Notes under the pieces: generated by a model | Seen by the model: the letters and a program-made list of their open reading frames with translations, nothing else | Database searches by the model: none | Told to the model about the DNA's origin: nothing | Origin: Clostridiaceae bacterium | GTDB taxonomy: Bacteria > Bacillota > Clostridia > Lachnospirales > Lachnospiraceae | Direction of reading: 5' to 3' | DNA length: 64,000 bases | NCBI GenBank assembly: GCA_902363735.1 | Contig: CABJBA010000002.1 | Location: 186,001 to 250,000 of the forward strand | Position numbers and translations under genes: made by a program | Shown here: positions 34,618 to 47,572 of the stretch, one piece after another | Numbering within the stretch: the first letter of the stretch is position 1 | How the letters are laid out: every line of letters begins with the position of its first letter

Positions 34618-34851
34618 ATGCCAAGAGGAGTAAGAAAAACACCGCTTGAAAAGCTTCAGGAAGAGTTGAAAGAGGTGCAGGAATCCATTCAGCAGTATAA
34701 AAACTGCCTTGTTACTTTAACCGAAAAAGAAAAAAACATTCAGGATAAAATGAAGCTGGAAGAATTTAAGGAAGTATCATCAATATTGGACGAGCATGAG
34801 ATGTCAATTATGGATTTAAAGGAATTGCTGATTTCATCAAAAGCAGAATAA
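34618..34851 (+). CDS. Small coiled-coil protein with PRGVRK N terminus (77 aa), host copy
   Basis: The ATG at 34618 has AAAGGAGAGG upstream; an in-frame ATG at 34579 has no site. The protein starts MPRGVRKTPLEKL, then forms a charged heptad-like helix (LQEELKEVQESIQQYKNCL) and ends with a conserved EEFKEVSSILDEHEM...LKELL segment. The basic start resembles an AT-hook-like DNA-contacting tip, but this is a guess. A paralogue sits 312 bp downstream inside the mobile element. The left attachment repeat lies 25 bp after its stop; the element has replaced its terminator. Confidence 0.75.
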   Translation: MPRGVRKTPLEKLQEELKEVQESIQQYKNCLVTLTEKEKNIQDKMKLEEFKEVSSILDEHEMSIMDLKELLISSKAE

Positions 34852-34876
34852 ATAAGCCTTCAGATGTTTGATGCAT

Positions 34877-34907
34877 CCGTGCAAATAAGGACGCAGTTTT
34901 AATTAAA
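34877..34907 (+). repeat. attL: left copy of 31-bp attachment repeat
   Basis: It is identical to 45988-46018 and contains the left arm and loop of a terminator whose right arm is missing here. Confidence 0.93.
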
Positions 34908-34947
34908 ATACGACATTATAAATTTGTATCACTAAAAAGCATAGATT

Positions 34948-35053
34948 ATATCGTATTTACGGGAAAAATATGAATCTGCATCTGCAAAATTTGTCATTCC
35001 ATATCGTATTATTTCGTTAGAAACCGTACTAGTTTGGGGCAGAATTTGGGGCA
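34948..35053. promoter_or_regulatory. Candidate integrase/Xis arm-type sites at the left end
   Basis: ATATCGTATT occurs at 34948-34957 and 35001-35010, with an inverted AATACGA at 34907-34913. TTTGGGGCA occurs at 35033-35041 and 35045-35053 (12-bp spacing). Related TGGGTCA and TGGGGCA lie at 45911-45917 and 45922-45928, just after the integrase gene. The rest of 34908-35163 has no gene. Confidence 0.55.
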
Positions 35054-35163
35054 AAATAATTACAATCAAAAATAATTAAGTATATGTTGTTTTGGTATTG
35101 TATATGACATTAAATATGTGATATACTCAATAATATCACAGAGCCATATGAGGAGGTCATCCA

Positions 35164-35409
35164 GTGCCAAGAGGAGTTCGCAAATCACCAACGGAAAGAC
35201 TTAAAGAAGAACTTGTCAAAACCAAAGAAGAAATTCAAAACTATAAAGACACCATAAAGTCACTTCAAGAAAAAGAGAAACAGCTTGAATCCGAGATACA
35301 AATAGAAGAACTCAAAGAAGTATCTTCTATCCTTGAAGAAAAGAACATGACCGTTGCAGAATTAAAAGAGTTTTTAAACGCAGCAGAAGCAAGTCCCAAA
35401 GATGAATAA
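35164..35409 (+). CDS. Small coiled-coil protein with PRGVRK N terminus (81 aa), element copy
   Basis: GTG start behind AGGAGGTC. It reads MPRGVRKSPTERLKEELVKT, then a charged helix, then EELKEVSSILEEKNMTVAELKEFL, and so matches the host gene at 34618 along its whole length (same start motif, same KEVSSIL block). It is the first gene inside the mobile element. Function is unknown; a DNA-binding or structural dimer is plausible from the basic tip plus coiled coil. Because the element destroyed the host terminator, read-through from the host copy could reach this gene. Confidence 0.75.
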   Translation: MPRGVRKSPTERLKEELVKTKEEIQNYKDTIKSLQEKEKQLESEIQIEELKEVSSILEEKNMTVAELKEFLNAAEASPKDE

Positions 35410-35464
35410 TGCAATAGGCCGGTTCCCTTTGTGGAATACGGTCTATTTTTTTTGATAAAAACCA

Positions 35465-35503
35465 GAACATATGTTTGATTTTCTTAGTGTAATATGATAT
35501 AGT
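35465..35503 (+). promoter_or_regulatory. SOS box overlapping the promoter of the lexA-like gene
   Basis: GAACATATGTTT (35465-35476) fits the Gram-positive LexA operator CGAACRNRYGTTYG at 13 of 14 positions when flanking bases are counted. It overlaps the -35 TTGATT (35475-35480), which is 17 bp from TATAGT (35498-35503). The site is 49 bp before the start codon. Confidence 0.8.
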
Positions 35504-35524
35504 ATTACAAGAGGTGGTGATGAC

Positions 35525-36157
35525 ATGAAAGACAAACGTAAATTATCAGATAGACAAGAACATATTTTGGAGTATATAAAAAAGACAATACTTGAAAAGG
35601 GTTATCCTCCTACTGTTAGAGAAATTGGAGAAGAAGTAGGCTTAAATTCGCCTTCTTCAGTACATGGACAATTAGAAGCCCTAGAGAAAAAGGGATATAT
35701 AAGAAGAGATCCTACTAAGCCTAGATCAATAGAAATTATGGACGATTGTTTTAGTTTGACAAAACGTGAAGTAATTAATGTGCCTGTACTAAGTGCCATA
35801 ATCTCCGAACAATCTTTGTATGATGAAGAGTGCATTGAAAGTTATTATCCTATACCTACGGAACTCTTACCTAATGCTGAGACTTTTATGTTTAAAATTC
35901 ATGATGACAGTATGAAAAAAGCAAAGATATTAAAAGATGATCAGGTTATTATAGAACGACTGACTGATGCAGAAAATGGTAATATCATAGCAGCTATTGT
36001 TGACGATAACGCTATCGTCAGGAGGTATTTTAAAGAAGGTGGACTCTATCGTTTGCAATCGGAGAGTGAGAGTGGTTCAACAGAAATAATCTTTGCAAGT
36101 CAGGTGAAAATTTTAGGAAGGGTAATTGGATTGTTCCGAGAAGGAATTCACAATTAG
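35525..36157 (+). CDS. LexA-family repressor lacking autocleavage site and catalytic lysine
   Basis: 210 aa. The N-terminal winged helix is a standard LexA DNA-binding domain (LSDRQEHILEYIKKTI, GYPPTVREIGEEVGL, NSPSSVHGQLEALEKKGYI). The C-terminal S24-type domain keeps the nucleophile Ser (S129 in DDSMKKA), but the Ala-Gly cleavage dipeptide is replaced by Ser94-Glu95 (SAIISEQS), and the catalytic Lys of the VKR motif is Arg166 (AIVRRYF). It should bind SOS-type operators yet not self-cleave. A near-consensus SOS box lies in its own promoter. Alternatively it has a different release mechanism, such as a partner protein. Confidence 0.9.
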   Translation: MKDKRKLSDRQEHILEYIKKTILEKGYPPTVREIGEEVGLNSPSSVHGQLEALEKKGYIRRDPTKPRSIEIMDDCFSLTKREVINVPVLSAIISEQSLYDEECIESYYPIPTELLPNAETFMFKIHDDSMKKAKILKDDQVIIERLTDAENGNIIAAIVDDNAIVRRYFKEGGLYRLQSESESGSTEIIFASQVKILGRVIGLFREGIHN

Positions 36158-36171
36158 ATAAAAATAACAAT

Positions 36172-36522
36172 ATGGTATTTTATATCAACAAACAGGCAAT
36201 AGAAATTAAATCAAGATTTGAAAATGCACCCCTGACATCAACTAATGAATGTTGTTGCGTTGTAGGTATTTTAGCTAAGATATATGGTTTACCAGTGCCT
36301 GTAAAATTTAACACGGTTGAAGAGATGTGCAACGATATTCATAGACAAATTGATGGAAAGCCAATACCATCGAATTACGCAGCTAAGATTATAAAACTTC
36401 TTGATGAGTATTTCAAACCGGGTGACATAACGGATGAATTGTATGAATTATTGAAATATGCTTACAATGAACAAATAGGGGTTGAACCAGCATATAAAGC
36501 TCCAAATTATAATAAACTGTAG
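36172..36522 (+). CDS. Hypothetical protein (116 aa) between lexA-like and polymerase genes
   Basis: It starts MVFYINKQAIEIKSRFENAP, has a double-Cys patch (NECCCVVGI) and a helical C-terminal half (IHRQIDGKPIPSNYAAKIIKLLDEYF). No clear ribosome binding site precedes the ATG, 14 bp after the lexA-like stop, so translation may depend on coupling. No family is recognised. Its fixed position in a repair cassette makes a repair or regulatory accessory role possible, which is inference only. Confidence 0.65.
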   Translation: MVFYINKQAIEIKSRFENAPLTSTNECCCVVGILAKIYGLPVPVKFNTVEEMCNDIHRQIDGKPIPSNYAAKIIKLLDEYFKPGDITDELYELLKYAYNEQIGVEPAYKAPNYNKL

Positions 36523-36561
36523 AGGGAGGCAAATTGCTTCCTTTTCTTTCCACTACCAAAA

Positions 36562-36582
36562 GAACATACATTCGATTATAAT
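36562..36582 (+). promoter_or_regulatory. SOS box and -10 element before the Y-family polymerase gene
   Basis: GAACATACATTC (36562-36573), with flanks AG... and ...G, matches the Gram-positive LexA operator at 12 of 14 positions. TATAAT follows at 36577-36582, 20 bp before the TTG start; the -35 is poor. Confidence 0.72.
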
Positions 36583-36601
36583 TGCTTTAGGAGGTGACAT
36601 T

Positions 36602-37867
36602 TTGAGAAAAATAATTTTTCACATTGATGTGAATTCCGCCTTTCTAAGCTGGGAAGCGGTTTATAGGTTGCATCACCTGGGTGGAACACTCGACTTACGA
36701 GAGATTCCTTCAGCGGTAGGTGGGGATGTGTCCAAGCGACATGGTATTATATTGGCAAAAAGTATACCGGCTAAGAAATATAAAATCCAGACTGGAGAGC
36801 CCGTAACCGATGCTTTAAGAAAATGTCCGGATCTTATACTTGTGCCTCCAAATTATAACTTATACCAAAAGTCATCCAGAGCATTTGTTAATATATTAAA
36901 ACAATACAGTCCAACGGTAGAGCAATACTCCGTAGACGAATGCTTTGTCGATATGACGGGAACTGAATCATTATTTGGAGATCCAATGATTGTAGCAAAT
37001 ACAATTAGAGAAAGAGTATATAATGAGTTAGGTTTTACTGTTAACATTGGTATATCAGATGTAAAAGTGCTGGCTAAAATGGCTTCTGACTTTAAAAAGC
37101 CCAATCTCTGTCATACATTATGGAAGAGCGAAATAAAAGACAAGATGTGGACATTACCCGTCTCTGATCTGTTTTTTGTTGGTAGAGCTACCACTAAAAA
37201 ATTATATAGTATTGGTATTAAATCAATAGGAGAGTTGGCGCAAACCAGTTTACCTATTATCAAATCACATCTTGGTAAGCACGGAGAGGTCATTTGGTCA
37301 TTTGCTAATGGATTGGATTTTTCGGCAGTTGAACCCATTCCTCCACCCAACAAGGGATATGGCAACAGTACAACAATTGCATTTGATGTAACAGATGCAA
37401 CGAATGCAAAGCTTGTATTGTTATCATTGGCAGAAACTGTATCGGCAAGATTGAGAGATGACAATGTTAAGATTAAGTTGGTGTCTGTTGGGATAAGAGA
37501 TTATAACCTCAGATATTACAGCCATCAGAAGAAGTTAACAGCAGCTACGAATATTACCCAAGAGATTTACGAATCAGCCTGTCAGATATTTGATGAGGCT
37601 TGGGATAAGATACCAATTCGACATTTGGGAATCCACACCAGTCATGTAGTGGCAGAAAATGAATCTAGGCAACTTAATCTATTTGACAATTTAGACTACG
37701 AGAAATTGGAACGATTAGATAAGTCAATTGATAACATTCGTAAAAGATTCGGAGTAGATTCCATTGTAAGAGCAAGTTTCATTAAGTCAGATAAAATTGA
37801 TCATATGAGTGGTGGAATTAGTCGTGAAAAGAGAACAGTGAATTATGATAAGCAAAATATATTGTAG
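36602..37867 (+). CDS. Y-family DNA polymerase (DinB/UmuC-like) with beta-clamp motif
   Basis: 421 aa from the TTG at 36602 behind AGGAGGTGAC; in-frame codons further up lack a site and the family start. Palm catalytic residues: D9 in FHIDVNSAF and D112-E113 in QYSVDECFVDMTG. Residue F14 occupies the steric-gate position. The little-finger domain is at about 255-350, and a clamp-binding QLNLF is at 357-361. It should copy damaged DNA (translesion synthesis). Its own SOS box and the downstream SRAP, Ku and ligase genes suggest damage-induced repair. An end-joining gap-filling role is inference. Confidence 0.93.
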   Translation: MRKIIFHIDVNSAFLSWEAVYRLHHLGGTLDLREIPSAVGGDVSKRHGIILAKSIPAKKYKIQTGEPVTDALRKCPDLILVPPNYNLYQKSSRAFVNILKQYSPTVEQYSVDECFVDMTGTESLFGDPMIVANTIRERVYNELGFTVNIGISDVKVLAKMASDFKKPNLCHTLWKSEIKDKMWTLPVSDLFFVGRATTKKLYSIGIKSIGELAQTSLPIIKSHLGKHGEVIWSFANGLDFSAVEPIPPPNKGYGNSTTIAFDVTDATNAKLVLLSLAETVSARLRDDNVKIKLVSVGIRDYNLRYYSHQKKLTAATNITQEIYESACQIFDEAWDKIPIRHLGIHTSHVVAENESRQLNLFDNLDYEKLERLDKSIDNIRKRFGVDSIVRASFIKSDKIDHMSGGISREKRTVNYDKQNIL

Positions 37868-37876
37868 GTGGCAGAT

Positions 37877-38188
37877 ATGGGGATTTTTGGAATAGACACA
37901 AATACAAAGGATATAGACAGTGGCGATATCAGAGGAAAAATGTATCATGTGGCTTGTAAGGTGTGGTTTACCGCTAGTTGTAGTCCTAGACCACTGAGCT
38001 TTAAGTTTGAGGGTGACGATGGTATAATACAAACGGTATCAGATATATGTATTAAAAGCAGTGAGGATAAAAATTATTCCGGTATTCCATCAAAGGAGTT
38101 CGTATGTGAGTCAATTATCGGTGGTTTCCTCAGAGAGTTTAAGTTGATATTTTTTATTGAATCCTGTAAATGGATTATGGTAATATAA
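37877..38188 (+). CDS. Small hypothetical protein following the Y-family polymerase (103 aa)
   Basis: The ATG at 37877 has AGGTGG five bases upstream; a GTG at 37868 is the alternative. The sequence is beta-rich (KMYHVACKVWFTASCSPRPLS, FKFEGDDGIIQTVSDICI, EFKLIFFIESCKWIMVI) with a Cys in several strands and no signal peptide. Position right after a translesion polymerase recalls YolD/UmuD-type partners in Firmicutes, but I see no clear YolD motif. It may be a polymerase accessory protein; this is inference. Confidence 0.6.
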   Translation: MGIFGIDTNTKDIDSGDIRGKMYHVACKVWFTASCSPRPLSFKFEGDDGIIQTVSDICIKSSEDKNYSGIPSKEFVCESIIGGFLREFKLIFFIESCKWIMVI

Positions 38189-38262
38189 TTGATGTAATCT
38201 GTCGAGCTGGATATAATACAATCGGAGCTAAAATGTTGATAATTAGAAAATGAGGTATTTAA

Positions 38263-38826
38263 ATGTGTGGGAGATATTACATTGAAATAGACAACGAGGA
38301 ATTGCAATCCATTGTTGCCGCTGTAGAAAATAAAACGGCGATAAAAACAGGAGAAATACGTCCAACCAATACTGTACCTGTATTATCTCCTACTGGAAAC
38401 ATGACAGCAATGCGTTGGGGTTTCCCGAAGCACTATGGTAAAGGCGTGGTCATCAATGCCAGAAATGAGACCGCAACAAAGTTAGATTCATTTTGGCGCC
38501 CGATGATTGATGATAGATGTTTAATTCCTGCAAGCTGGTACTTTGAATGGAAAGAACATGAATCCAAAAAAGTTAAATACTCTTTTTTCTCTCCAGATAA
38601 AAGCCCTCTATGGCTGGCTGGCCTTTCACAAACAAACCATGAAACAGGAGAATCATTGTTTGTAATTTTAACTCGTCCTGCCTGGTCAGGTATTTCGTTT
38701 ATTCATGATAGAATGCCAGTAATTCTTCCCAAGGAAAAACATGATGAATGGTTAAACGGTAATAATCCTGTGGTTACAATGAGTAAGTCCGTTAACGAAG
38801 TCAATTATGAAAAAGCAGAGGTATAG
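38263..38826 (+). CDS. SOS response-associated peptidase (SRAP/HMCES/YedK family)
   Basis: 187 aa. All family residues are visible: Cys2 right after Met (MCGRYY), the NARNET motif (N65), Glu95 in SWYFEWKE and His148 in IHDRMPVIL. SRAP proteins form a thiazolidine bond from Cys2 to abasic sites in single-stranded DNA and protect them from cleavage. The start must be the ATG at 38263, since Cys2 becomes the N terminus. It belongs to the SOS-linked block behind the Y-family polymerase. Slightly short for the family but complete. Confidence 0.93.
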   Translation: MCGRYYIEIDNEELQSIVAAVENKTAIKTGEIRPTNTVPVLSPTGNMTAMRWGFPKHYGKGVVINARNETATKLDSFWRPMIDDRCLIPASWYFEWKEHESKKVKYSFFSPDKSPLWLAGLSQTNHETGESLFVILTRPAWSGISFIHDRMPVILPKEKHDEWLNGNNPVVTMSKSVNEVNYEKAEV

Positions 38827-38858
38827 AGCCTTTATGGCAGTAGAGTGGCATAAACACT

Positions 38859-39047
38859 TTAATTAATTTTGTTCTGATCCTCTGGAATTGCTGGAATTAT
38901 CACGATCATGTCACCGAATATCATTTCTTGCAGAACTTGTCCCTTTTGAAAATTTGTACCAGACATATAGGTACCACTTAGATTGATAGATGATCCGTTA
39001 TAACGGGTTAGATTAATTGTTTTAAGATTTTTGTCATTATTATTCAT
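38859..39047 (-). CDS. SymE-like/AbrB-fold small protein, antisense to the repair block (62 aa)
   Basis: It runs opposite to its neighbours with GGAAGG upstream of its ATG. Residues 12-52 (INLTRYNGSSINLSGTYMSG, then NFQKGQVL and GDMIVIIPA) match the pattern of SymE toxins (Pro/Ile-rich strand, LSGxx, xGFxxGxxL, xIVI), which have an AbrB-type fold. In E. coli SymE is SOS-induced and silenced by an antisense RNA. Here + strand transcription from SRAP would run antisense over the whole gene to the terminator at 39117. Toxin assignment is inference and needs structure comparison. Confidence 0.5.
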   Translation of the reverse strand: MNNNDKNLKTINLTRYNGSSINLSGTYMSGTNFQKGQVLQEMIFGDMIVIIPAIPEDQNKIN

Positions 39048-39116
39048 GTGGCCGTCCTTCCTACCACTCTACCTTGTAATCATAACATAATAAAAAGAAT
39101 TTGAAAAGCCCTTTTG

Positions 39117-39145
39117 AGGCCGTCCATTATCTGAGACGGCCTTTT
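39117..39145 (+). terminator. Intrinsic terminator between SRAP/SymE-like region and ku
   Basis: AGGCCGTC (39117-39124) pairs with GACGGCCT (39135-39142), followed by TTT. On the + strand it ends the SRAP transcript after crossing the antisense gene. Confidence 0.75.
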
Positions 39146-39231
39146 GTATATAATTTAATATTTTTCATAACCATCGCAGAATGCATAATTTCCCTCTTTT
39201 ATCAAACACTATTTCAAAAGGAGGTGTTAAT

Positions 39232-40008
39232 ATGGCCGTAGCACATAAAAGTGCAATTAGTGTAGGTATGCTCTATATACCAGTTGGATTATATAAAACA
39301 ACCAAAGACATATCAGTGAGTTTTAATCAGCTTTGCAAAGACACTCACGAACGTGTTAAATATCAGAAAATATGTCCCTCTTGTAACAAAGAGGTAAAGC
39401 CAGACGGAATCATTAAGGGATATGAATATGAAAAAGGTAAATATGTGACCTTTCAAGAGGATGAGCTTGAACGTATTAAAACAAAGAAAGATAAGACGAT
39501 ACACATTGAACATTTTGCAAAACTGGCTGATGTGGATCAGATATTTTATGAAAAAAATTATTATGTTGTGCCAGAACCGGGAGCTGAAAAGGCATGTGAA
39601 TTATTACGCCAGGCAATGCTTTCTCAGAAGAAGGTGGGCATAGCAAAAACTGTTATCGGATCAACAGAAAATTTAATGGTATTGTATCCGACTAAAGACG
39701 GGATTATAGCCAAAACTTTATTTTATCAAGCAGAGATCCAAGCAGTACCCGTCGCAGTAACTAAAGCTGATGTTACAAAACCAGAAGTAGATATGGCTAA
39801 AACCATGATTGAATCTATGACCCAAACCTTTGACCCCAGTCTCTATCATGATGAATATCAAGAGAAATTAAGACAAGCCATTGAAGGTAAAATAGCCGGC
39901 AAAGAAATTGTAAATGCCGATAATGGTGCACAAAACAACATCATTGACCTTATGGAGGCTATGAAGAAAACCGTTGAAATGGCGAAAGGAAATAAAGGAT
40001 TAGCATGA
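39232..40008 (+). CDS. ku: Ku protein, non-homologous end joining
   Basis: 258 aa from the ATG at 39232 (AAGGAGGTG upstream). Bacterial Ku core: it starts AHKSAISVGMLYIPVGLYKT, then YQKICPSCNKEVKPDGIIKGYEYEKG, and a central FYQAEIQAVP region. Ku homodimers ring-bind double-strand ends and recruit the ligase. The C-terminal tail is short (VEMAKGNKGLA) and lacks the long Lys-rich extension of some species. It overlaps the ligase gene by 4 bp (ATGA), so a Ku-ligase pair is made in step. It is located inside the mobile element, not in a core locus. Confidence 0.95.
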   Translation: MAVAHKSAISVGMLYIPVGLYKTTKDISVSFNQLCKDTHERVKYQKICPSCNKEVKPDGIIKGYEYEKGKYVTFQEDELERIKTKKDKTIHIEHFAKLADVDQIFYEKNYYVVPEPGAEKACELLRQAMLSQKKVGIAKTVIGSTENLMVLYPTKDGIIAKTLFYQAEIQAVPVAVTKADVTKPEVDMAKTMIESMTQTFDPSLYHDEYQEKLRQAIEGKIAGKEIVNADNGAQNNIIDLMEAMKKTVEMAKGNKGLA

Positions 40009-40931
40009 TGGATATTTTTGATACAAAGAATATTAGTCCTATGCTTATATCTGAAATGCAAGACCCATTTGATTCACCCGACTATATTTATGAAATAAAA
40101 TGGGACGGTATTAGATGCGTGTCCTTCTTGGGCAATGAAACAGATATACGGAATAAGAGAAACAAACTTATGTCCCATATATTTCCCGAACTGGAAAACC
40201 TGCATAAGCAAGTCAAAACCAAATGTATTCTTGACCATGAATTGATAGTTATGAAAAACGGGAAACCAGATTTCTACGAGGTGCAAGGTCGATCCATTAA
40301 GACAAATCCATTTAAAATCAAATTAGCTTCAGATAAATTTCCCGCCAGTATAGTCGTCTATGATATTCTATACTACAAAGACAAAGATATAACCATGCTA
40401 CCCCTTGTGGAGCGAAAGAAATATCTCGAAGAAGTAGTAATAGAAGATGGTAGTATTTCAGTTTCTCGTTATGTGGAGAATGATGGAATCGCACTATTCA
40501 ATCTAGTAAAGGAACAAGAGTTAGAAGGAATAGTTGCCAAAAGAAAAGATAGTCTGTATTGGCAAGGAAAAAAGTCAAAAGACTGGATCAAGTGCAAAGT
40601 AATGTCTACAGACGATTGTGTCATCTGCGGATATATACCAAAAGCCAATAATATGACAAGTCTTGTACTAGGGCTATATGATAATGAGGTTCTTGTGTAT
40701 AAAGGACACGTGACTCTTGGAGTAAGTCTTAGAATTTTAAATCAGCACAAATATAAAGTGATTGATTACTCCCCTTTTGGATATGTCCCGGAAGGTAATA
40801 ATGATGCTGTATGGCTTGTTCCGGAATTAGTTTGTATTGTAGAATCTATGCCTACCGAAAAAGACAGTTTTAGACAACCGGTTTTTAAAGGTATCAGAGA
40901 TGATAAGTTGGCGAAAGAGTGCATTGTTTGA
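40005..40931 (+). CDS. ATP-dependent DNA ligase (LigD-type ligase domain only)
   Basis: 308 aa. The nucleotidyltransferase motif I is EIKWDG with adenylated Lys32; other motifs include VYDILYYKDKD, ELEGIVAKRKDS and KDWIKCKV. A C-terminal OB domain follows. There is no polymerase (primase-like) or 3'-phosphoesterase domain, which are fused in full LigD, so end processing must come from other proteins. It is translationally coupled to ku. It seals double-strand breaks held by Ku. The neighbouring Y-family polymerase could supply fill-in synthesis; that is inference. Confidence 0.93.
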   Translation: MMDIFDTKNISPMLISEMQDPFDSPDYIYEIKWDGIRCVSFLGNETDIRNKRNKLMSHIFPELENLHKQVKTKCILDHELIVMKNGKPDFYEVQGRSIKTNPFKIKLASDKFPASIVVYDILYYKDKDITMLPLVERKKYLEEVVIEDGSISVSRYVENDGIALFNLVKEQELEGIVAKRKDSLYWQGKKSKDWIKCKVMSTDDCVICGYIPKANNMTSLVLGLYDNEVLVYKGHVTLGVSLRILNQHKYKVIDYSPFGYVPEGNNDAVWLVPELVCIVESMPTEKDSFRQPVFKGIRDDKLAKECIV

Positions 40932-41020
40932 TGAAATTACAGATACAACATATAGTGAAAAAGTGTTTTAAAAACACAATATATAGTGATAAAATCCCGA
41001 TGAAAGTCAGATTTTATCGT

Positions 41021-41064
41021 AAAAAATAGGGAATAGTTGAGCTTAATACTCCTCTATTCCCTAT
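41021..41064 (-). terminator. Terminator of the phage tail remnant (minus strand)
   Basis: On the minus strand ATAGGGAATAG pairs with CTATTCCCTAT, followed by TTTTT. It ends the XkdX-like gene transcript and separates it from the ligase gene. Confidence 0.8.
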
Positions 41065-41080
41065 GAAGTTTTATATATTA

Positions 41081-41215
41081 TTATTTATATTCTTCTCCGG
41101 TGATCTCCTGGTATTCTTCTGCTGTGATCCAGCGGCTTACGGCATTCCAAGTCATTTTGAATGACCATAATTTGTCATTATAGAACTCCTTTACCAGATT
41201 AAAATTCTTACTCAT
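41081..41215 (-). CDS. XkdX-family phage protein (44 aa)
   Basis: Reads MSKNFNLVKEFYNDKLWSFK, then WNAVSRWITAEEYQEITGEEY, the typical short XkdX pattern found downstream of phage tail-fibre genes. The start overlaps the upstream 92-aa gene by 8 bp (TGA/ATG coupling). It is the last gene of the phage tail fragment; a terminator follows immediately. Confidence 0.8.
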   Translation of the reverse strand: MSKNFNLVKEFYNDKLWSFKMTWNAVSRWITAEEYQEITGEEYK

Positions 41216-41486
41216 TGATTTCGCCCTCCATTTCCACTCCAGACATCATGGTTAAGTACGCAACCTGGGCACGTAACTCTTTTACTTCTTTTTCTAAAGC
41301 GCTTTCTTTGGGTGGATTAAATACAACCTTGTGATTTTCCGAATCCGATACATCAACGTTTGTGATTAAAGCTCCCTCTGGTAGATCAAATACTTTACCT
41401 TTTATTTCTTCTGGGGCGCTCTGATCTTCCCCATATCTCACAGCATGAACACTGCCCGTTTCATCATAAATTACATATACTTTCAT
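41208..41486 (-). CDS. Phage tail-region protein (92 aa)
   Basis: Acidic small protein: MKVYVIYDETGSVHAVRYGE, a middle beta-rich part, and a C-terminal heptad helix (ALEKEVKELRAQVAYLTMM). Proteins of this type commonly lie between the tail fibre gene and XkdX in Firmicute prophages. ATG start with AGGAGG at good spacing. It is part of the minus-strand tail remnant. Confidence 0.65.
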   Translation of the reverse strand: MKVYVIYDETGSVHAVRYGEDQSAPEEIKGKVFDLPEGALITNVDVSDSENHKVVFNPPKESALEKEVKELRAQVAYLTMMSGVEMEGEINE

Positions 41487-41499
41487 TATTTAACCTCCT

Positions 41500-42027
41500 T
41501 TAGGTTGTTGAAAAGTCGATTCTTTTTACGATAAATCCAACACCGTCCTCAGCGTATACGTCTGACCGAACGGGATCGGGTATTATTACGAAATAAGCTT
41601 GTTCGTTTATGTCGCTAATATCTATCGACATGGATGTAATACCACTGTCAAACGTTTGACTTTGGCTAGTTTTGATTACAGTGGTGTGATTGGACTTATA
41701 AAAGGCAACTTTTAAATTTGCCAATTCAAAATTAGCTCCTCGGTAATAACGACTATGCCCATGTATTATTAACCCTTTAAATGGTGACATGTTTATGGAA
41801 GTCCTGTTACACACACGCGCCGATGAGGAACCCATGCTCCCATCAGCGGTGCGAAGGTGTAGACCATTGGCATTAACAGAAAATAGAGCATAAGGATCTG
41901 AATTATAATAATTTCGCACCCCTCCGGTCAAGACCCCCGAAAAGGTGCCATTTAAAAAGACGTTTGACCCGTTGCCAAGTAACTGTAATCTACAGCAGAT
42001 CCTGTCAGTTTGATCCCGTTTACCCAT
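41500..42027 (-). CDS. C-terminal half of split phage tail protein
   Basis: Beta-rich, tail-fibre-like sequence (LNGTFSGVLTGGVRNYYN, FSVNANGLHLRTADGS, AYFVIIPDPVRSDVYA). The ATG at 42027 has no good ribosome binding site. It overlaps the upstream tail gene in the -1 frame, and the upstream frame ends in TAA right after a run of five T. It most likely was one gene with the 41952-42506 ORF, broken by a frameshift or joined by a -1 slip; a tail-related protein either way. Confidence 0.55.
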   Translation of the reverse strand: MGKRDQTDRICCRLQLLGNGSNVFLNGTFSGVLTGGVRNYYNSDPYALFSVNANGLHLRTADGSMGSSSARVCNRTSINMSPFKGLIIHGHSRYYRGANFELANLKVAFYKSNHTTVIKTSQSQTFDSGITSMSIDISDINEQAYFVIIPDPVRSDVYAEDGVGFIVKRIDFSTT

Positions 42028-42506
42028 GCCGTATACCCGCTCAAAATCCTTGGTGCTGTAGCTGTACCCACTGTCTGACTTGCCAGACTGTTTGCCGTAA
42101 CCTTTCCTGAACCGTTGTGGTATCCCGCAGGAACCATATAACTTCCTCCAGCATTAAGTGAGGAAGTAACCGCTCCTCGATTCACAACGGCACCATCTAA
42201 TTTACTCTTTGCGTTTGTATTGTAGAATGTATAACCCTCTATTACTTGATTCGGAGTGGCGGTACCAGTCAGTTCAAGAGTTCCAGTCAGTTTACTTTTC
42301 GCGTTTGTATTATAAAATGATGAATCTTTTAAAACGTCCCCAATGGTCGCAGTTCCTGTTAATTCAAGTGTGCCGGCTCCGATTTCATCATCCGAATCTG
42401 AAGTTACTGCCGTACATCCTTTTAAGACATCGCTGAGAGTTGACGTAAGCTCATCAGAACCGATTCCGCCACCGCCCCCAATATTAGTAATTCCGCATTT
42501 AGCCAT
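41952..42506 (-). CDS. N-terminal half of phage tail protein with repeated GTLELTGTAT modules
   Basis: It starts MAKCGITNIGGGGGIGSDEL, typical of Firmicute phage tail proteins, followed by repeated modules (AGTLELTGTATIGDVLKDSS, then FYNTNAKSKLTGTLELTGTA). It ends at an early TAA with SYLATGQTSF. The next 500 bp continue in the -1 frame with tail-like sequence, so this looks like the front part of a longer gene. It overlaps the start of its upstream neighbour by 1 bp. Confidence 0.65.
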   Translation of the reverse strand: MAKCGITNIGGGGGIGSDELTSTLSDVLKGCTAVTSDSDDEIGAGTLELTGTATIGDVLKDSSFYNTNAKSKLTGTLELTGTATPNQVIEGYTFYNTNAKSKLDGAVVNRGAVTSSLNAGGSYMVPAGYHNGSGKVTANSLASQTVGTATAPRILSGYTAWVNGIKLTGSAVDYSYLATGQTSF

Positions 42507-43126
42507 TATTTTCTCACCACCTCTACATAATCAATATTCAAATTACTTTTAGGAAGTTTATTTGCTTTTAAGACAAAATTTCCTTCACCAGTGTTACTCT
42601 TGACATAAATAAATGCCTTTGAAGCATTCAGTTTACTGTCATCAGCAAAATATATTAAGACTCTGTCATCTTCTAAAATATCATTTGAGTGATAAGTAAA
42701 CTCTAAATTACTGTCCCAGTCTTCCAATGATATTGTAATATTATCCGCAATCATAACTCCTGTTAAAAATTCTGTCTTTTCAGCAGAATATGCATTGGTT
42801 TTCTTTTCATCTCCAACGGCATCATCTTTAATTCCAATAGTATGTTGTGCAACCTCAATAATCATTGCATCAACATCGTCTTTAAAAAACTTCTGCGTAG
42901 ATTTCATTTCGTCTAAAAGTACGTTAAATTTATCTGCGTTAAATAGCGATTTATCTAAATTGGGATATTGTAGTTTAAGTTGCGCCATTTTATCAGTATT
43001 ATTATTTTCCCAAGCTTCGTTGTACTGATCTACAATTGGTCTGAGAGTTGGAGATACATCTTGCATATTTGGCATTTCACATATTTCCTCTGGGAAATTA
43101 CTTTTTGGATATTCAGGATAAGCCAT
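42506..43126 (-). CDS. Phage tail/baseplate-associated hypothetical protein (206 aa)
   Basis: It starts MAYPEYPKSNFPEEICEMPN with AGGAG upstream. The N-terminal part is helical (LRPIVDQYNEAWENNNTDKM, LLDEMKSTQKFFKDDVDAM) and the C-terminal part is a beta sandwich-like region (NITISLEDWDSNLEFTYHS, KAFIYVKSNTGEGNFVLKA). It lies between a DUF5048-like gene and the tail-fibre gene, so it is a tail or baseplate upper protein. Specific function is unknown. Confidence 0.65.
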   Translation of the reverse strand: MAYPEYPKSNFPEEICEMPNMQDVSPTLRPIVDQYNEAWENNNTDKMAQLKLQYPNLDKSLFNADKFNVLLDEMKSTQKFFKDDVDAMIIEVAQHTIGIKDDAVGDEKKTNAYSAEKTEFLTGVMIADNITISLEDWDSNLEFTYHSNDILEDDRVLIYFADDSKLNASKAFIYVKSNTGEGNFVLKANKLPKSNLNIDYVEVVRK

Positions 43127-43141
43127 TTAATCAACTCCTTT

Positions 43142-44311
43142 CTATTTATTTTTTCTGTCATAAACATAAGAAAAACTCTCCAGAAATTTATAGAGAGTTA
43201 CATTCATAACACCTTCACCTGTTGACCAATTTATATTTTTAATAATGTATTGGTTAAGCGTTTTATTGTATCTGGGCGTATATTCAACTTTTGTGTTCAC
43301 CTCAAGCCATGGCACGACTAGCATGGTTAAATTCAACGTGTCCATCATAGCAGTGGATTTATAAGTCAGATATTCGGCTTGGTTGTAGCAAGCTGCATCA
43401 TCTGATAAATTGTCGTAATCAACTGTATTTATAATCTCATATCCTAAATTTACTACCGAGAACGGACACTCTACGGATTCTTCAACATAACGTCCGTAAC
43501 ATTGAAATTGACCCAATAAAAAAAGAGCATTTTGCTCTGTATTTATTCGCCTATATCTAAAGACGTATATATTATCTGCTTTTAGCACTCCTGATTTTAA
43601 CGTATTTCCGTCACCATCATAAATAGGAATTGAAGATAGTTCGTTGATAGAAAATGTGGGATCATCTACGTTTTCAGTCATGATTTTAAATGCAATCTGG
43701 GTCAGATTATCTACATCTTGCCACGATGAAACCATATCTAAAGTGATATTATATGTATTGTTTGAATATGTCGACGCATCAGCATATCGGTCTGAATTAT
43801 CCAATTCCAATACCTTTCCCCACACCTCAGTCACGTTATATATGCTACTGAAATTTGTGTCAGCATTTTCATCTTTAACAATACTCTGCATCAACTTATC
43901 ATCTAACACGATTGGTTCTTGTAAGCCAGTGGGAATCTGTCTCCATACAAAAGTACCGTCAACATCAAAATAAAACTCCCAAGAATCATATAAATCTCGG
44001 ATTTTCGTCCAAACGTCTGCATAAGTTGCTCCCGTAGAGAATGTTAAATCATATGGTGTAGGTTTACCAATATCTTCGACGATGTATTTGGTTATACCTG
44101 CCGATTTTAAAGTTCCGATTATTGACAATCGTATATCTTCACCCGCAGGAATTAAAAGATTCTTAACGGCATAATCGGGAGCGTTAGGAGTAGAACCTTT
44201 CCCATGCAGTTGTCCGTTTAAAGTACCATCATATAAAGACATTAAATCCCCACATGTAAGTGTTAAAGATGTAGTGTTCCAGAAAAAACAATATTCAAGC
44301 GTGGCAGACAA
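43142..44311 (-). CDS. Phage tail protein (DUF5048-like), N-terminally truncated
   Basis: 389 aa visible from a TTG at 44311. It has the DUF5048-like block LTLTCGDLMSLYDGTLNGQL and ends with MNVTLYKFLESFSYVYDRK. Immediately upstream in frame is a TAA, and the normal longer N terminus is missing. It therefore appears cut by a deletion whose edge lies near 44275-44311, next to the integrase end of the element. No ribosome binding site fits the TTG. Probably a non-functional remnant of the tail module. Confidence 0.6.
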   Translation of the reverse strand: MSATLEYCFFWNTTSLTLTCGDLMSLYDGTLNGQLHGKGSTPNAPDYAVKNLLIPAGEDIRLSIIGTLKSAGITKYIVEDIGKPTPYDLTFSTGATYADVWTKIRDLYDSWEFYFDVDGTFVWRQIPTGLQEPIVLDDKLMQSIVKDENADTNFSSIYNVTEVWGKVLELDNSDRYADASTYSNNTYNITLDMVSSWQDVDNLTQIAFKIMTENVDDPTFSINELSSIPIYDGDGNTLKSGVLKADNIYVFRYRRINTEQNALFLLGQFQCYGRYVEESVECPFSVVNLGYEIINTVDYDNLSDDAACYNQAEYLTYKSTAMMDTLNLTMLVVPWLEVNTKVEYTPRYNKTLNQYIIKNINWSTGEGVMNVTLYKFLESFSYVYDRKNK

Positions 44312-44468
44312 AAATTATTACAGAGAACCAACTGAAAACGATTGGTTAAATGCTAAGTGGGTACTTGAAAATGGAAGTATATTACCTGGACACGTAATCT
44401 ATCAATCAAAAGGTAGACAAGGTAGAGGAGTTTATTTGAAAACTAAGTGGCATCAGTATTGCTATTAA
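44274..44468 (+). CDS. Short ORF at the deletion junction
   Basis: The first part overlaps the phage gene antisense; the plausible part is from about 44301 (ADKNYYREPTENDWLNAKWV, then a Gly/Lys-rich end). It has no convincing start or site and no family match, so it is probably the 3' remnant of a deleted gene. Confidence 0.25.
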   Translation: MFQKKQYSSVADKNYYREPTENDWLNAKWVLENGSILPGHVIYQSKGRQGRGVYLKTKWHQYCY

Positions 44469-44486
44469 TATAAGAGGAGGGATAAT

Positions 44487-44666
44487 TTGAAAGTATTAAC
44501 ACAAAAAGATCTCTTAGAAATATTACCGTTTGGCAGAACAAAGCTAAATGAATTATTAATGTCAAACGTTTTACCAGTAACTAAGATTGGAAGGGATTAT
44601 ATAACAACAGAAGAAAGATTGAATGAATGGATACAGGAAAATATTGGGAGAGAGATAAAGTATTAA
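44487..44666 (+). CDS. xis: Xis-like/MerR-type helix-turn-helix protein (59 aa)
   Basis: TTG start behind GAGGAGG at six bases. The sequence MKVLTQKDLLEILPFGRTKL, LMSNVLPVTKIGRDYITTEE, RLNEWIQENI is the pattern of small excisionase/AlpA-type DNA-binding proteins. It lies 83 bp before the integrase gene, the usual place for a recombination directionality factor. It likely promotes excision together with the integrase. Too short for most ORF listings. Confidence 0.8.
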   Translation: MKVLTQKDLLEILPFGRTKLNELLMSNVLPVTKIGRDYITTEERLNEWIQENIGREIKY

Positions 44667-44670
44667 AATA

Positions 44671-44699
44671 TTGAAACAAGACACAATCGGTGCTATAAT
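44671..44699 (+). promoter_or_regulatory. Predicted promoter of the integrase gene
   Basis: TTGAAA (44671-44676), 17-bp spacer, TATAAT (44694-44699), 50 bp before the integrase ATG. Confidence 0.75.
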
Positions 44700-44749
44700 C
44701 AAGTAACTTAATTATTTTGATTGTAGCACTATTTTTAGGAGGATTGTAG

Positions 44750-45901
44750 ATGAGTGTTACAAAAAAGCAAAAACGAAACTCGTGGCATGAAGGGAGTGTT
44801 CGCCAAAGATCAGATGGTAGATTTGAAGGAAGAGTTACTTTCAATGGATTAACCAAGTATACTTATGGCAAGACAGAAACGGAATGTAAAAGAAAACTAA
44901 AAAGCATCATTAGGGATTATGATGATGGATTGATAAATCCAAGAACAGCTACTCTTTATGATTATTGTAAACAATATATTAATCAAAAGAAAAATTCGAT
45001 TGAACCATCTACATCGGATAGGTTAAATATTATCACCGAAAAGCAAATAGGTGAATCAAAAATAGCTAACAAGCAATTTGGTGCGCTAAAATCGGAAGAG
45101 TTACAAGAATTTTTTTTATCTCTATCATCACAATATAGCTACGGTACAATTAAGAATGTATACAACTTTGTTTCGAGTGTATATAATCACGCTATTGCAA
45201 ATAAAGACGTAAGTTGCAATCCAATGCTAACAACATCTATGCCGAAGGAAAAATTATGTAAAAAAACAAAAGAGACGTTTGCTTTATCACCGGGTCAAAT
45301 TGCAGAACTCAAATCTTCTTGTTTAGAAAAGAATAAAAGCAATGGATTATACAAATATAGATATGGATTAACTCTTCTTTTAATCTTAAATACCGGTATG
45401 AGAATAGGAGAAGCAATTGCGTTGGAATGGAGCGATATTGATTTCGACAAAAGGTTGATTAGGATTAGTAAATCAATGCAGTATTATGTAAAAGTTGAAA
45501 ACAGTGATCGTAGAGAATCATTTGTTAAATCACCAAAAACAAAGAACTCTAAGCGCATCATACCCATTAATAATGAAATAGAATATGTTCTCGGTGAGAT
45601 AAAAGAATTGAATTCTGGAATTGAATCAGATATAGTATGTTGTAACGAAAATGGTGGATATGCTCTTGCTAGAAGTATTCAACGAGCACTAACAATGATT
45701 GCCAAAGATACAAATATTCCTTATATTTGGGTTCATCTTTTAAGGCATACATTTGGATCAGAATTAATCCGTAAAGGAGTGGATATATCTATAGTAAGTA
45801 GATTAATGGGGCATAGTAATGCAACCACTACTTATAATAGTTATATTCATGTATTAGAAGAAGAAGCGGCCAAAGCAATGTCGTTACCAATGATTAGTTA
45901 A
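44750..45901 (+). CDS. int: Tyrosine site-specific integrase
   Basis: 383 aa. N-terminal arm-binding part (HEGSVRQRSDGRFEGRVTFN), core-binding helices, then the catalytic domain with Arg in NTGMRIGEAIALEWSDID, HxxR in HLLRHTFGSELI, His in RLMGHSNATTTYNSY and the nucleophile Tyr in YNSYIHV. ATG start behind AGGAGG with its own promoter. It lies 86 bp from the right attachment repeat and is expected to recombine the 31-bp repeats. Likely arm sites lie just after its stop. Confidence 0.95.
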   Translation: MSVTKKQKRNSWHEGSVRQRSDGRFEGRVTFNGLTKYTYGKTETECKRKLKSIIRDYDDGLINPRTATLYDYCKQYINQKKNSIEPSTSDRLNIITEKQIGESKIANKQFGALKSEELQEFFLSLSSQYSYGTIKNVYNFVSSVYNHAIANKDVSCNPMLTTSMPKEKLCKKTKETFALSPGQIAELKSSCLEKNKSNGLYKYRYGLTLLLILNTGMRIGEAIALEWSDIDFDKRLIRISKSMQYYVKVENSDRRESFVKSPKTKNSKRIIPINNEIEYVLGEIKELNSGIESDIVCCNENGGYALARSIQRALTMIAKDTNIPYIWVHLLRHTFGSELIRKGVDISIVSRLMGHSNATTTYNSYIHVLEEEAAKAMSLPMIS

Positions 45902-45987
45902 TCGAATTAATGGGTCAAATATGGGGCAGACAATAAAACATCACAATATTGCATCAAAAAACACTGTAAATACGTACTAAATAAGAG

Positions 45988-46018
45988 CCGTGCAAATAAG
46001 GACGCAGTTTTAATTAAA
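45988..46018 (+). repeat. attR: right copy of 31-bp attachment repeat
   Basis: It is identical to 34877-34907. Here the left arm and loop are joined to the native right arm, so the host terminator is intact at this end. Confidence 0.93.
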
Positions 46019-46035
46019 CTGCGTCCTTATTTTTT
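45994..46035 (+). terminator. Strong intrinsic terminator reconstituted at attR
   Basis: A 17-bp perfect stem (45994-46010 with 46016-46032), 5-nt loop and a T-tract. Its left half is the attachment repeat, so this was the terminator of the small host gene now at 34618-34851. It now ends the integrase transcript before the rhamnose operon. Confidence 0.93.
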
Positions 46036-46135
46036 GTCTCCATATCCGTTATGATGGATGCAGAAGTATCCTTAAGGTTTTTTGTATGCCTGAGAAGTAT
46101 GGGCAGAAAAAGGGAAGGAATGGAGAGTGGTTTAT

Positions 46136-47572
46136 ATGAAAAGGTACTATCTTGCCATAGACATCGGTGCCTCCAGTGGCCGTCATATTCTGGGCTCTGT
46201 AAAAGAAGGAAAGATAGTCTTTGAGGAGATTTACCGGTTTGACAATGGCATGACAACCAAAGACGGACATTTGTGCTGGAATGTAGAGTCCTTATTTGCA
46301 GAAGTCAAAGAGGGCATGAAGCAGTGTAAAAAACTTGGAAAAGTTCCGGTTACCATGGGGATTGATACCTGGGCAGTGGACTTTGTTCTTTTGGATGAAG
46401 AAAACCGGATGCTGGGAAATGCAGTGGCATACCGGGATGACAGGACAAAGGGAGCGGATGATAAGGTATATAAGATCATATCTTCAGAGGACTTATATGT
46501 GAGAACGGGAATTCAGAAGCAGATTTTCAACACCATTTATCAGCTTACAGCTGTAAAGGAAGAAACACCTGAACATTTGGAAAAAGCCGATTCTTTCCTT
46601 ATGATTCCCGACTATTTTCATTATCTTCTGACAGGGGTAAAGACGCAGGAGTATACCAATGCCACCACCACCCAGTTGATGAACCCGGAAACAGGAAACT
46701 GGGATTATGAATTGATTGGGAAACTGGGACTTCCAGAGAGACTTTTTGGTCAGCTTTCTATGCCTGGAACTTCAGCAGGAACATTGAAGCCGGAAATAGA
46801 AACAGAATTAGGATTTAGCTGCAAAGTGGTTCTTCCTGCCACCCATGATACAGGTTCCGCTGTTATGGCTGTTCCGGTGACGGAAGGCAGGGGAAATTCC
46901 ATGGAGGATATTCTTTACATAAGCTCAGGAACCTGGTCTCTTATGGGGACAGAACTGGAAAAGGCAGATTGTTCTATGGAAAGTATGAAAGCTAATTTTA
47001 CTAATGAGGGCGGTTACGATTTACGGTTTCGTTATTTGAAAAATATTATGGGACTGTGGATGATTCAGTCTGTAAGGAAGGAATTTGCAGATGAAGGGCA
47101 GGATTATTCCTTTGCCAGGCTGTGCAAGATGGCTTCAGAGGAGACCATTACTTCTATTGTAGACTGTAATGACAGCACATTTCTGGCACCGGAGAGCATG
47201 GTAAAAGCAGTGCGGGATTTTTGCCGCAGATCTGGAGTACAGGTGCCTGAAACGGCAGGAGAAGTGGCAGCTGTCATTTATAACAGCCTTGCCGCCTGTT
47301 ATAAGAATACAGTTGATGAGCTGGAAGCTATTACAGGAAAGGCTTACTCCTCTCTTTATGTGGTGGGCGGAGGCTCCAATGCAGAGTATTTAAACCAGTT
47401 GACTGCAAACAGTACAGGCCGTACTGTCTATGCCGGACCAGGGGAAGCTACGGCCATCGGCAATCTGCTGGCCCAGATGCTGGCAGCAGGAGAATTTGAA
47501 GATTTAAAATCAGCAAGAGAGGCAGTTTACCGTTCTTTTGCCATAACGGCATACAAACCAGATCATAATTAA
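46136..47572 (+). CDS. rhaB: Rhamnulokinase
   Basis: 478 aa from the ATG at 46136 (GGAGAG upstream). FGGY carbohydrate kinase: an N-terminal phosphate loop YYLAIDIGASSGRHI, GIDTWAVDFVLLD and TTTQLMNPETGNWD, with a C-terminal ATP part ISSGTWSLMGTE and LYVVGGGSNAEYLNQL. It phosphorylates L-rhamnulose to rhamnulose-1-phosphate in the cytoplasm. It is the first gene of rhaB-rhaM-rhaA-rhaD. It lies directly right of the mobile element, and promoter elements could not be pinned down in the 100 bp between. Confidence 0.95.
   Translation: MKRYYLAIDIGASSGRHILGSVKEGKIVFEEIYRFDNGMTTKDGHLCWNVESLFAEVKEGMKQCKKLGKVPVTMGIDTWAVDFVLLDEENRMLGNAVAYRDDRTKGADDKVYKIISSEDLYVRTGIQKQIFNTIYQLTAVKEETPEHLEKADSFLMIPDYFHYLLTGVKTQEYTNATTTQLMNPETGNWDYELIGKLGLPERLFGQLSMPGTSAGTLKPEIETELGFSCKVVLPATHDTGSAVMAVPVTEGRGNSMEDILYISSGTWSLMGTELEKADCSMESMKANFTNEGGYDLRFRYLKNIMGLWMIQSVRKEFADEGQDYSFARLCKMASEETITSIVDCNDSTFLAPESMVKAVRDFCRRSGVQVPETAGEVAAVIYNSLAACYKNTVDELEAITGKAYSSLYVVGGGSNAEYLNQLTANSTGRTVYAGPGEATAIGNLLAQMLAAGEFEDLKSAREAVYRSFAITAYKPDHN

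What the first reader, a model, noticed from the sequence alone, without database searches (positions are those of the whole stretch)
34877..46018. 11.1-kb mobile element carrying a Ku-ligase-translesion-SRAP repair cassette
Seen: one element bounded by a perfect 31-bp repeat encodes Ku, an ATP-dependent ligase (no LigD polymerase or phosphoesterase domain), a clamp-binding Y-family polymerase, SRAP and a LexA homologue. Known: Ku-ligase performs bacterial end joining; SRAP shields abasic sites; Y-family enzymes bypass lesions. Inference: together these form a portable, damage-linked end-joining and lesion-tolerance module in which the Y-family polymerase could do the fill-in normally done by LigD. 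I do not know of this exact combination being described, but cannot check.
Basis: partly seen in the sequence, partly recalled or inferred. Interest (0 to 1): 0.93.

Follow-up and report, generated by a model that had tools for sequence, protein, structure and literature searches.

The report
Prophage remnant with DNA repair genes
An 11-kb stretch of a Clostridia-type bacterium's chromosome looks like the leftover of a large virus genome that once inserted there, and it still carries a set of DNA-repair genes (break joining plus damage bypass) that related viruses carry too, next to predicted DNA-damage control sites.

Summary
A perfect 31-bp repeat (34877-34907, 45988-46018) bounds genes for a LexA homologue, Y-family polymerase, SRAP, Ku, a lone ATP ligase and an integrase. 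Four of 10 Lacrimispora relatives read have the site empty, so the segment was inserted. It is not a purpose-built element: the rest is tail genes, a tail protein lacking its first ~107 residues that abuts an endolysin stub, and an excisionase-like gene. It is a prophage remnant; two relatives with the module have terminase, portal and tape-measure genes, one terminase being SPbeta-like. The module recurs in L001, L009, L020 and L056 (SRAP only in L001). Its halves are separate units in the genus: polymerase-orf106(-SRAP), with a conserved SOS box, and Ku-ligase, without one. LigD-polymerase was not found in 25 genus genomes, so its absence here is ordinary. DinB-SRAP-LexA-Ku-ligase operons were published in 2013. 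Apparently new: the prophage setting; Ku-ligase directly downstream of an SOS-boxed operon in three relatives (a terminator-like hairpin intervenes here); a LexA lacking cleavage site and catalytic lysine, as in two relatives. Whether the polymerase replaces LigD-POL is open (15/22 vs 3/8, p=0.21).

The parts
34877..34907 (+). attL: 31-bp direct repeat, left copy
   Evidence: exact repeat; empty attB in L085-L088
45988..46018 (+). attR: 31-bp direct repeat, right copy, part of an intact terminator-like hairpin
   Evidence: hairpin -24.4 kcal/mol, z -8.0
35164..35409 (+). cc81: small coiled-coil-like protein (MPRGVRK...), first gene inside attL
   Evidence: no family match; homologues ahead of lexA in L001, L009, L020, L056, L123
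35464..35477 (+). SOS-type box upstream of the lexA homologue, 1 mismatch to a recalled consensus
   Evidence: such a box lies upstream of lexA in 6 of 6 loci scanned, window included
35525..36157 (+). LexA homologue; Ser kept, cleavage Ala-Gly replaced by Ser-Glu, catalytic Lys replaced by Arg
   Evidence: TIGR00498 3e-55; alignment to E. coli LexA and to 7 relatives
36172..36522 (+). DUF3837 protein
   Evidence: PF12939 4.8e-15
36561..36574 (+). SOS-type box upstream of the Y-family polymerase, 2 mismatches
   Evidence: a box at the like place in 13 of 13 polymerase loci scanned, window included
36602..37867 (+). Y-family DNA polymerase, TTG start after a good ribosome site; QLNLF clamp-type motif near the C-end (motif recalled)
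   Evidence: PF00817, PF11799; pol IV structures 2.8e-40; start read
37877..38188 (+). orf106: small all-beta protein, likely polymerase partner, possibly a stand-alone ImuB-C-like domain
   Evidence: 110 homologues; fused behind the polymerase in one 552-aa frame in L154; model pLDDT 85.5
38263..38826 (+). SRAP (YedK/HMCES family), begins MCGRYY
   Evidence: PF02586 5.4e-38; YedK structures 1.9e-14
39116..39143 (+). terminator-like hairpin between SRAP and Ku
   Evidence: -16.6 kcal/mol, z -4.7
39232..40008 (+). Ku
   Evidence: TIGR02772 2e-78; 92% identical to L001
40005..40931 (+). lone ATP-dependent DNA ligase (LIG only), overlaps the Ku stop
   Evidence: PF01068, PF04679; TIGR02779 199.7 bits, below cut-off; 1vs0
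41208..41486 (-). phage protein at the end of the tail block
   Evidence: 50% identical homologue at the like place in L001
41500..42027 (-). ORF within the tail block
   Evidence: position only; no Pfam match
41952..42506 (-). phage protein
   Evidence: phrog_13589, unknown function, 1.2e-20
42506..43126 (-). phage protein of the tail block
   Evidence: 45-71% identical in L001, L009, L056, L057
43142..44311 (-). tail protein lacking about the first 107 residues of its 493-495-aa homologues
   Evidence: phrog_1887, DUF5048
44292..44468 (+). C-terminal stub of an endolysin-like protein; it meets the truncated tail gene at about 44300-44320, the deletion junction
   Evidence: 48% identity over 54 aa to the C-end of L056:3277-3822, 6e-15; that protein matches lysis PHROGs weakly (5.6e-5)
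44487..44666 (+). excisionase-like HTH protein
   Evidence: HTH_17 7.6e-5, below Pfam cut-off
44750..45901 (+). tyrosine integrase, full length
   Evidence: PF00589 3.2e-28; 60% identical homologue in G005

Best explanation
The segment is a heavily deleted prophage of a large (IMG/VR records of 128-136 kb), SPbeta-related group found in Lacrimispora and kin. An integrase recombined attP with a terminator hairpin between a coiled-coil gene and rhaB (shown by empty sites). Nearly all the phage genome between a tail gene and an endolysin gene was then lost (shown by the two abutting truncations). What remains is the cargo module at the attL side plus xis-int. The module combines two units that are separate elsewhere in the genus: an SOS-boxed polymerase-orf106-SRAP operon and a Ku-ligase pair (inferred from trees and neighbourhoods). 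Most likely working (inferred): host LexA represses the SOS boxes; damage lifts repression; the polymerase with orf106 bypasses lesions at the clamp, SRAP caps abasic sites, and Ku-ligase rejoins ends without LigD-POL, helping lysogen and prophage survive damage. In three relatives Ku-ligase is directly downstream of the SOS operon; in the window a terminator-like hairpin intervenes, so Ku-ligase here is probably not, or only partly, damage-inducible. The phage LexA homologue probably cannot self-cleave and acts as a constitutive or otherwise controlled repressor.
For: Repeat and empty sites. Tail genes, truncated tail protein, endolysin stub, xis, int. Relatives with terminase, portal and tape measure in the same prophage, L009/G003 and L056/G006; terminase of L056 44-45% identical to the SPbeta-type rows listed; SPbeta has ligase yoqV next to SRAP yoqW. 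Order cc-LexA-Ypol-orf106-(SRAP)-Ku-Lig in L001, L009, L020, L056; the prophage with the nearest LexA (95%), L123, has the module without Ku-Lig. Host genes lie left of cc81 in L001 and L009. SOS-type box at the polymerase in 13 of 13 loci, none within 1.5 kb upstream of chromosomal Ku in 4 of 4. Gaps of 68, 58 and 57 bp in L001, L020, L056. L020's Ku falls in another well-supported clade than the others. dN/dS 0.03-0.12 for Ku, Lig, Ypol, orf106 and SRAP in the 6 pairs of these genes where it could be computed.
Against: No expression or phenotype data. dN/dS pairs are near saturation at synonymous sites, could not be computed for Ypol and LexA against L001, and mostly reflect time before the deletion. 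SOS boxes were scored with a recalled consensus; 0.78 hits of this quality are expected per 11 kb, so only position and conservation give them weight. Of the Ku-bearing cassettes only the window and L001 have SRAP. L009 too has a terminator-like hairpin before Ku. L020 is called a prophage on weak tail matches. The window itself keeps no gene that ties it to SPbeta.
Confidence: 0.65

Rival explanations
1. A self-standing integrative element specialised for repair: integrase plus repair cargo that moves as an 11-kb unit.
For: Perfect repeats and full-length integrase; empty sites in relatives. Two of 10 relatives read at this site (G002, G030) hold a 42-bp, 86% identical piece that encodes the C-end of Ku (blastn 1.4e-6), perhaps the trace of an earlier Ku-bearing insert there.
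Against: Tail genes, truncated tail protein and endolysin stub; the same module sits in prophages with head and packaging genes; no second copy of the 11-kb unit was seen: none among 50,697 phage records by megablast, though chromosomes were searched only by protein.
Confidence: 0.15
2. The Y-family polymerase with orf106 is the gap-filling polymerase of this end-joining pathway, standing in for LigD-POL.
For: LigD-POL found in 0 of 25 Lacrimispora genomes while Ku is over cut-off in 16 of 25; in 368 family genomes orf106 is in 18 of 30 with Ku against 54 of 338 without (Fisher 3e-7); joined to Ku-ligase in the window, L001, L009, L020, L056.
Against: Among Ku genomes orf106 is in 15 of 22 without and 3 of 8 with LigD-POL, p=0.21; kinship and genome size not controlled; in G194 a full LigD is itself beside SRAP and the polymerase; that is the only one of 28 family Ku loci read with the polymerase near.
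Confidence: 0.25
3. The LexA homologue is mainly the prophage's own maintenance repressor, not a damage switch; the repair genes are ordinary lysogenic cargo.
For: Cleavage site and Lys lost together in window, L123 and L009, 3 of 8 LexAs aligned, while Lys is kept in the other 5; dN/dS window-L123 0.077.
Against: Its DNA-binding domain still matches LexA and its own promoter has an SOS-type box; 4 of the 5 that keep Lys also keep Ala-Gly.
Confidence: 0.35
4. Pure decay: a dead prophage whose cassette genes are intact only because little time has passed.
For: Most of the phage genome is gone.
Against: The cassette ORFs are full length with low dN/dS, though that signal mostly predates the deletion.
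Confidence: 0.2

Closest known systems
SOS operons with DinB, SRAP, LexA, Ku and ATP-dependent ligase (Aravind et al. 2013, PMC3765255; abstract and passages seen)
   Same: Same partners in one neighbourhood, in elaborate versions with a small stand-alone domain (ImuB-C) next to DinB
   Different: Described as bacterial operons, with SRAP in SPBc2 and other prophages mentioned apart; the passages seen do not treat Ku-ligase in prophages or a LexA change
Bacillus phage SPbeta / SPBc2 (NC_001884)
   Same: Similar genome size, related terminase, adjacent ligase yoqV (LigB) and SRAP yoqW; Y-family polymerase in SPbeta-like phages such as phi3T and Goe11
   Different: No Ku match in any Bacillus phage record (70 records: 69 Mycobacterium, 1 unnamed); in the 7 kb read no polymerase or LexA is annotated beside yoqV-yoqW
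Non-conventional bacterial NHEJ (Ku with LIG but no POL), PMC7719229, passages seen
   Same: Ku plus lone LIG; over-represented in Firmicutes; C. saccharolyticum listed as a secondary gain
   Different: Words beginning 'phage' or 'prophage' do not occur in its text
Mycobacteriophage Ku
   Same: Phage-borne Ku (69 Mycobacterium records)
   Different: 26-29% identity in the Mycobacterium rows listed; no Mycobacterium phage among the 44 records matching the ligase

Membership tests
Integrated tyrosine-recombinase element | Direct repeats, integrase, empty site in relatives | tested here: met
Complete prophage | Head, packaging and full tail genes between att sites | tested here: not met
   only a tail block and an endolysin stub lie between att sites
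SPbeta-like phage group | Terminase homologous to Spbetavirus | tested here: inconclusive
   met for the relative L056/G006; the gene is missing from the window
Bacterial NHEJ (Ku-ligase) | Ku over cut-off with adjacent ATP ligase | tested here: met
Conventional LigD NHEJ | POL and PE domains with LIG | tested here: not met
   ligD_pol in 0 of 25 genus genomes; PE was not searched in genomes
Self-cleaving LexA | Scissile Ala-Gly and Ser-Lys dyad (as stated in PMC8565304, passages) | tested here: not met
   Ser kept; Ala-Gly is Ser-Glu, Lys is Arg
SRAP | SRAP domain with Cys2 | tested here: met
   sequence starts MCGRYY
Aravind DinB-SRAP-LexA-Ku-ligase neighbourhood | These five genes together, same strand | tested here: met
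ImuB-C superfamily (orf106) | Profile match to ImuB-C | tested here: inconclusive
   19 members gave no convincing Pfam match, best 0.05; no ImuB-C profile was built; fusion behind the polymerase in L154 fits
SOS regulon | Damage-induced expression | not testable with these tools
   boxes only

The most novel reading that the evidence does not exclude
A lineage of large Lachnospiraceae prophages captured host Ku-ligase, more than once or with later swaps, and placed it behind a LexA-boxed Y-polymerase operon, creating SOS-inducible end joining in which a translesion polymerase with a beta-domain partner replaces LigD-POL; some of these prophages also evolved an uncleavable LexA decoy that caps the host SOS response.
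Probability: 0.2. Interest if true: 0.72.

Novelty: new variant of a known kind. Interest (0 to 1): 0.45.

Why it matters
Bacterial end joining is usually discussed as Ku with multi-domain LigD, outside the SOS response (recalled). Here prophages carry Ku with a bare ligase, in three relatives directly downstream of an SOS-boxed translesion operon. That gives a natural system to test whether phages make end joining damage-inducible, which polymerase fills gaps where LigD-POL seems to be missing from a genus, and what an apparently uncleavable phage LexA does. It also suggests prophages as one route by which NHEJ is gained in Clostridia.

Tried and rejected
Fixed chromosomal locus: rejected as the general case. 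Of 28 Ku loci read from a 368-genome family sample (30 over cut-off; G002 and G003 read elsewhere; several of the 28 are cut by contig ends), 1 (G194) has SRAP and the polymerase nearby. Of 12 Ku loci read in the genus, none has an intact polymerase within the stretch; L195 (G005) has a broken polymerase-Ku-ligase copy 5.4 kb from its Ku, and L192 (G028) has cc81-LexA-DUF3837-orf106-ligase without polymerase and Ku 4.3 kb from its Ku. Known phage or plasmid copy of the segment: no megablast match in phages; plasmids were searched with Ku only. tRNA in the window or Rfam RNA in 34000-47000: none. orf106 fold comparison: not run, tool unavailable. Co-occurrence support for polymerase fill-in: not significant. 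The 'host' rows of the polymerase tree may include prophages: L125 is identical in polymerase to viral contig L145 and has an endolysin-like gene nearby. L124 and L147 were labelled phage on cassette likeness, IMG/VR origin or neighbours, not on head genes.

Counting choices. In one search the LigD-POL set was 8 genomes: 7 over cut-off plus G117 (210.3 of 214.7 bits); three weaker hits (G161, G292, G396) were counted as lacking it. Ku set: 30 over cut-off, weak G139 dropped. The Ku tree used the window and 33 of 60 loci, picked by hand; 'phage' there means linked to the polymerase module, so viral contigs L058-L060 were not labelled phage. Its forced minimum is 2 label changes, gains or losses, 4 in the best tree; 17 of 500 shuffles were as low. 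The first excisionase query was in a wrong frame and was put right.
Full report
1. The observation. A perfect 31-bp repeat lies at 34877-34907 and 45988-46018 and nowhere else in the window at up to three mismatches. Between the copies are, left to right: a small coiled-coil-like gene, a LexA homologue, DUF3837, a Y-family polymerase, orf106, SRAP, Ku and a lone ATP ligase (plus strand), a minus-strand block of tail-type genes, an endolysin stub, an HTH excisionase-like gene and a tyrosine integrase. GC inside is 33-39% against 43-46% in the nearest windows outside.

2. It was inserted. The right flank, rhamnulokinase (TIGR02627), matches 25 of 25 genomes of the genus of G002 (Lacrimispora xylanisolvens by locus L002) with best matches of 70-78% identity; the window's own genome is not held. 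I read the orthologous place in 10 of the 25. In four (L085-L088) the coiled-coil gene, the repeat core and rhaB follow within about 130-380 bases: the empty site. In the other six there are different small inserts or an extra coiled-coil copy. None of the 10 has the cassette, but two (G002, G030) hold a 42-bp piece, 86% identical, that encodes the C-end of Ku, perhaps the trace of an older Ku-bearing insert. The target is a terminator-like hairpin.

3. It is a prophage remnant. The tail protein at 43142-44311 lacks about the first 107 residues of its 493-495-aa homologues, and where its homology stops, at about 44305, the C-terminal part of an endolysin-like protein begins on the other strand (48% identity over 54 aa, 6e-15). 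Relatives with the module next to the same tail genes have terminase, portal and tape measure proteins further on (L009/G003, L056/G006). The terminase of L056 is 44-45% identical to those of the SPbeta-type Bacillus phages listed, and SPbeta carries ligase yoqV beside SRAP yoqW. In L001 and L009 host genes stand left of the cassette, so it begins at the prophage end there as in the window; in L056 an endolysin-like gene and a split integrase precede it.

4. How the cassette is built. A scan of chromosomal contigs with a Ku alignment gave 55 loci, 3 with the polymerase module intact (L001, L009, L020) and 1 with a broken copy (L012); a scan of viral contigs gave 5, of which L056 has the module and L057 starts inside it and has the same Ku as L009. 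In Lacrimispora a polymerase of at least 66% identity is in 22 of 25 genomes, and in a 23rd (G001) only as the copies linked to Ku. Twenty polymerase loci were fetched: 20 of 20 have orf106, 14 of 20 SRAP, 0 of 20 Ku; one of them, L123, is the prophage with the nearest LexA (95%). L144, viral, has ligase but no Ku. Ku is over cut-off in 16 of 25 genomes. In the Ku tree L020 falls in a different well-supported clade from the window, L001, L009 and L056, so the join happened at least twice or Ku was swapped. The polymerase tree groups 7 of 9 phage rows, with weak support (84/50). Viral contigs with Ku-ligase but no module also occur (L058-L060).

5. Regulation. With a recalled Firmicutes SOS consensus, a box with at most 2 mismatches lies within about 50 bases upstream of the polymerase in 13 of 13 loci scanned and upstream of lexA in 6 of 6, but not within 1.5 kb upstream of chromosomal Ku in 4 of 4. 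Such hits are expected 0.78 times per 11 kb, so the weight lies in position and conservation. From the SOS operon to Ku there are 68, 58 and 57 bp in L001, L020 and L056, but 405 bp in the window and 663 bp in L009, each with a terminator-like hairpin. So damage-coupled Ku is plausible in three relatives and doubtful in the window.

6. The LexA homologue. Against E. coli LexA the catalytic Ser is kept, but Ala-Gly is Ser-Glu and the catalytic Lys is Arg. L123 and L009 have also lost both; L001, L020, L056, L144 and L147 keep Lys, four of them with Ala-Gly and L001 with Ala-Ser. The window-L123 pair shows dN/dS 0.077. The features of self-cleaving S24 repressors are as stated in PMC8565304 (passages). 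I predict a repressor that does not respond to RecA in the textbook way; an Arg at this place in E. coli LexA is recalled to keep some activity under special conditions, so this is a prediction only.

7. orf106. It has 110 homologues and no convincing Pfam match, is predicted as an all-beta fold (pLDDT 85.5), and in one genome is fused behind the polymerase in a single 552-aa frame. This resembles the stand-alone and fused ImuB-C domain of PMC3765255 (passages), but membership was not shown.

8. Fill-in hypothesis. LigD-POL was found in 0 of 25 genus genomes. In 368 family genomes Ku (30) and orf106 (72) co-occur in 18 (Fisher 3e-7), but among Ku genomes orf106 is in 15 of 22 without LigD-POL and in 3 of 8 with it (p=0.21). 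Kinship and genome size were not controlled. All 8 LigD-POL genomes have Ku.

9. What is known. PMC3765255 reports DinB-SRAP operons that may include LexA, Ku and ATP ligase (abstract and passages). Ku in phages is known (PMC8136500 counts 11 phages; passages; 70 records here). Non-conventional NHEJ in Firmicutes is known (PMC7719229, passages). My paper searches listed none that, by title and start of abstract, describes this cassette in prophages; they cover only the open PMC library and those terms.

10. Verdict. A real and coherent feature, correctly read as horizontally gained repair cargo, but known in its combination and decayed in its carrier. Worth follow-up for the SOS-boxed NHEJ cassettes of the intact relatives and the unusual LexA.

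Noticed in passing
window 60680-60693: Box that fits the recalled SOS consensus without mismatch (CGAACATGCGTTTG), 87 bases upstream of an addB-like gene (TIGR02773, 888.5 bits, cut-off 903.7, gene runs off the window).
   Followed up: partly
window 34579-34851 and L089-L094: The site next to rhaB is a hot spot: 6 of 10 relatives carry other inserts there (AAA-type ATPase, S8-type peptidases, LysM protein; named by eye) or an extra copy of the MPRGVRK coiled-coil gene (4 of the 6); a paralogue is the first gene of the prophage, and two relatives keep a Ku C-end fragment.
   Followed up: partly
L192:12862-15730 and L195:803-2366: Prophage-type cassettes lie 4.3 and 5.4 kb upstream of the chromosomal Ku-ligase in G028 and G005: one lacks polymerase and Ku, the other is broken.
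   Followed up: no
L161:6786-12222: Chromosomal cluster Ku - LigD (811 aa) - SRAP - Y-family polymerase - weak orf106 in an unnamed family genome (G194).
   Followed up: partly
L060:6264-11706: 142-kb viral contig, identical in Ku to Konateibacter massiliensis L017, with Ku-ligase near its terminase and without the polymerase module.
   Followed up: partly
L189-L200: Chromosomal Ku-ligase pairs share neighbours only within two groups of genomes and stand at other places in G018, G014, G004, suggesting that the two-gene unit itself moves.
   Followed up: partly
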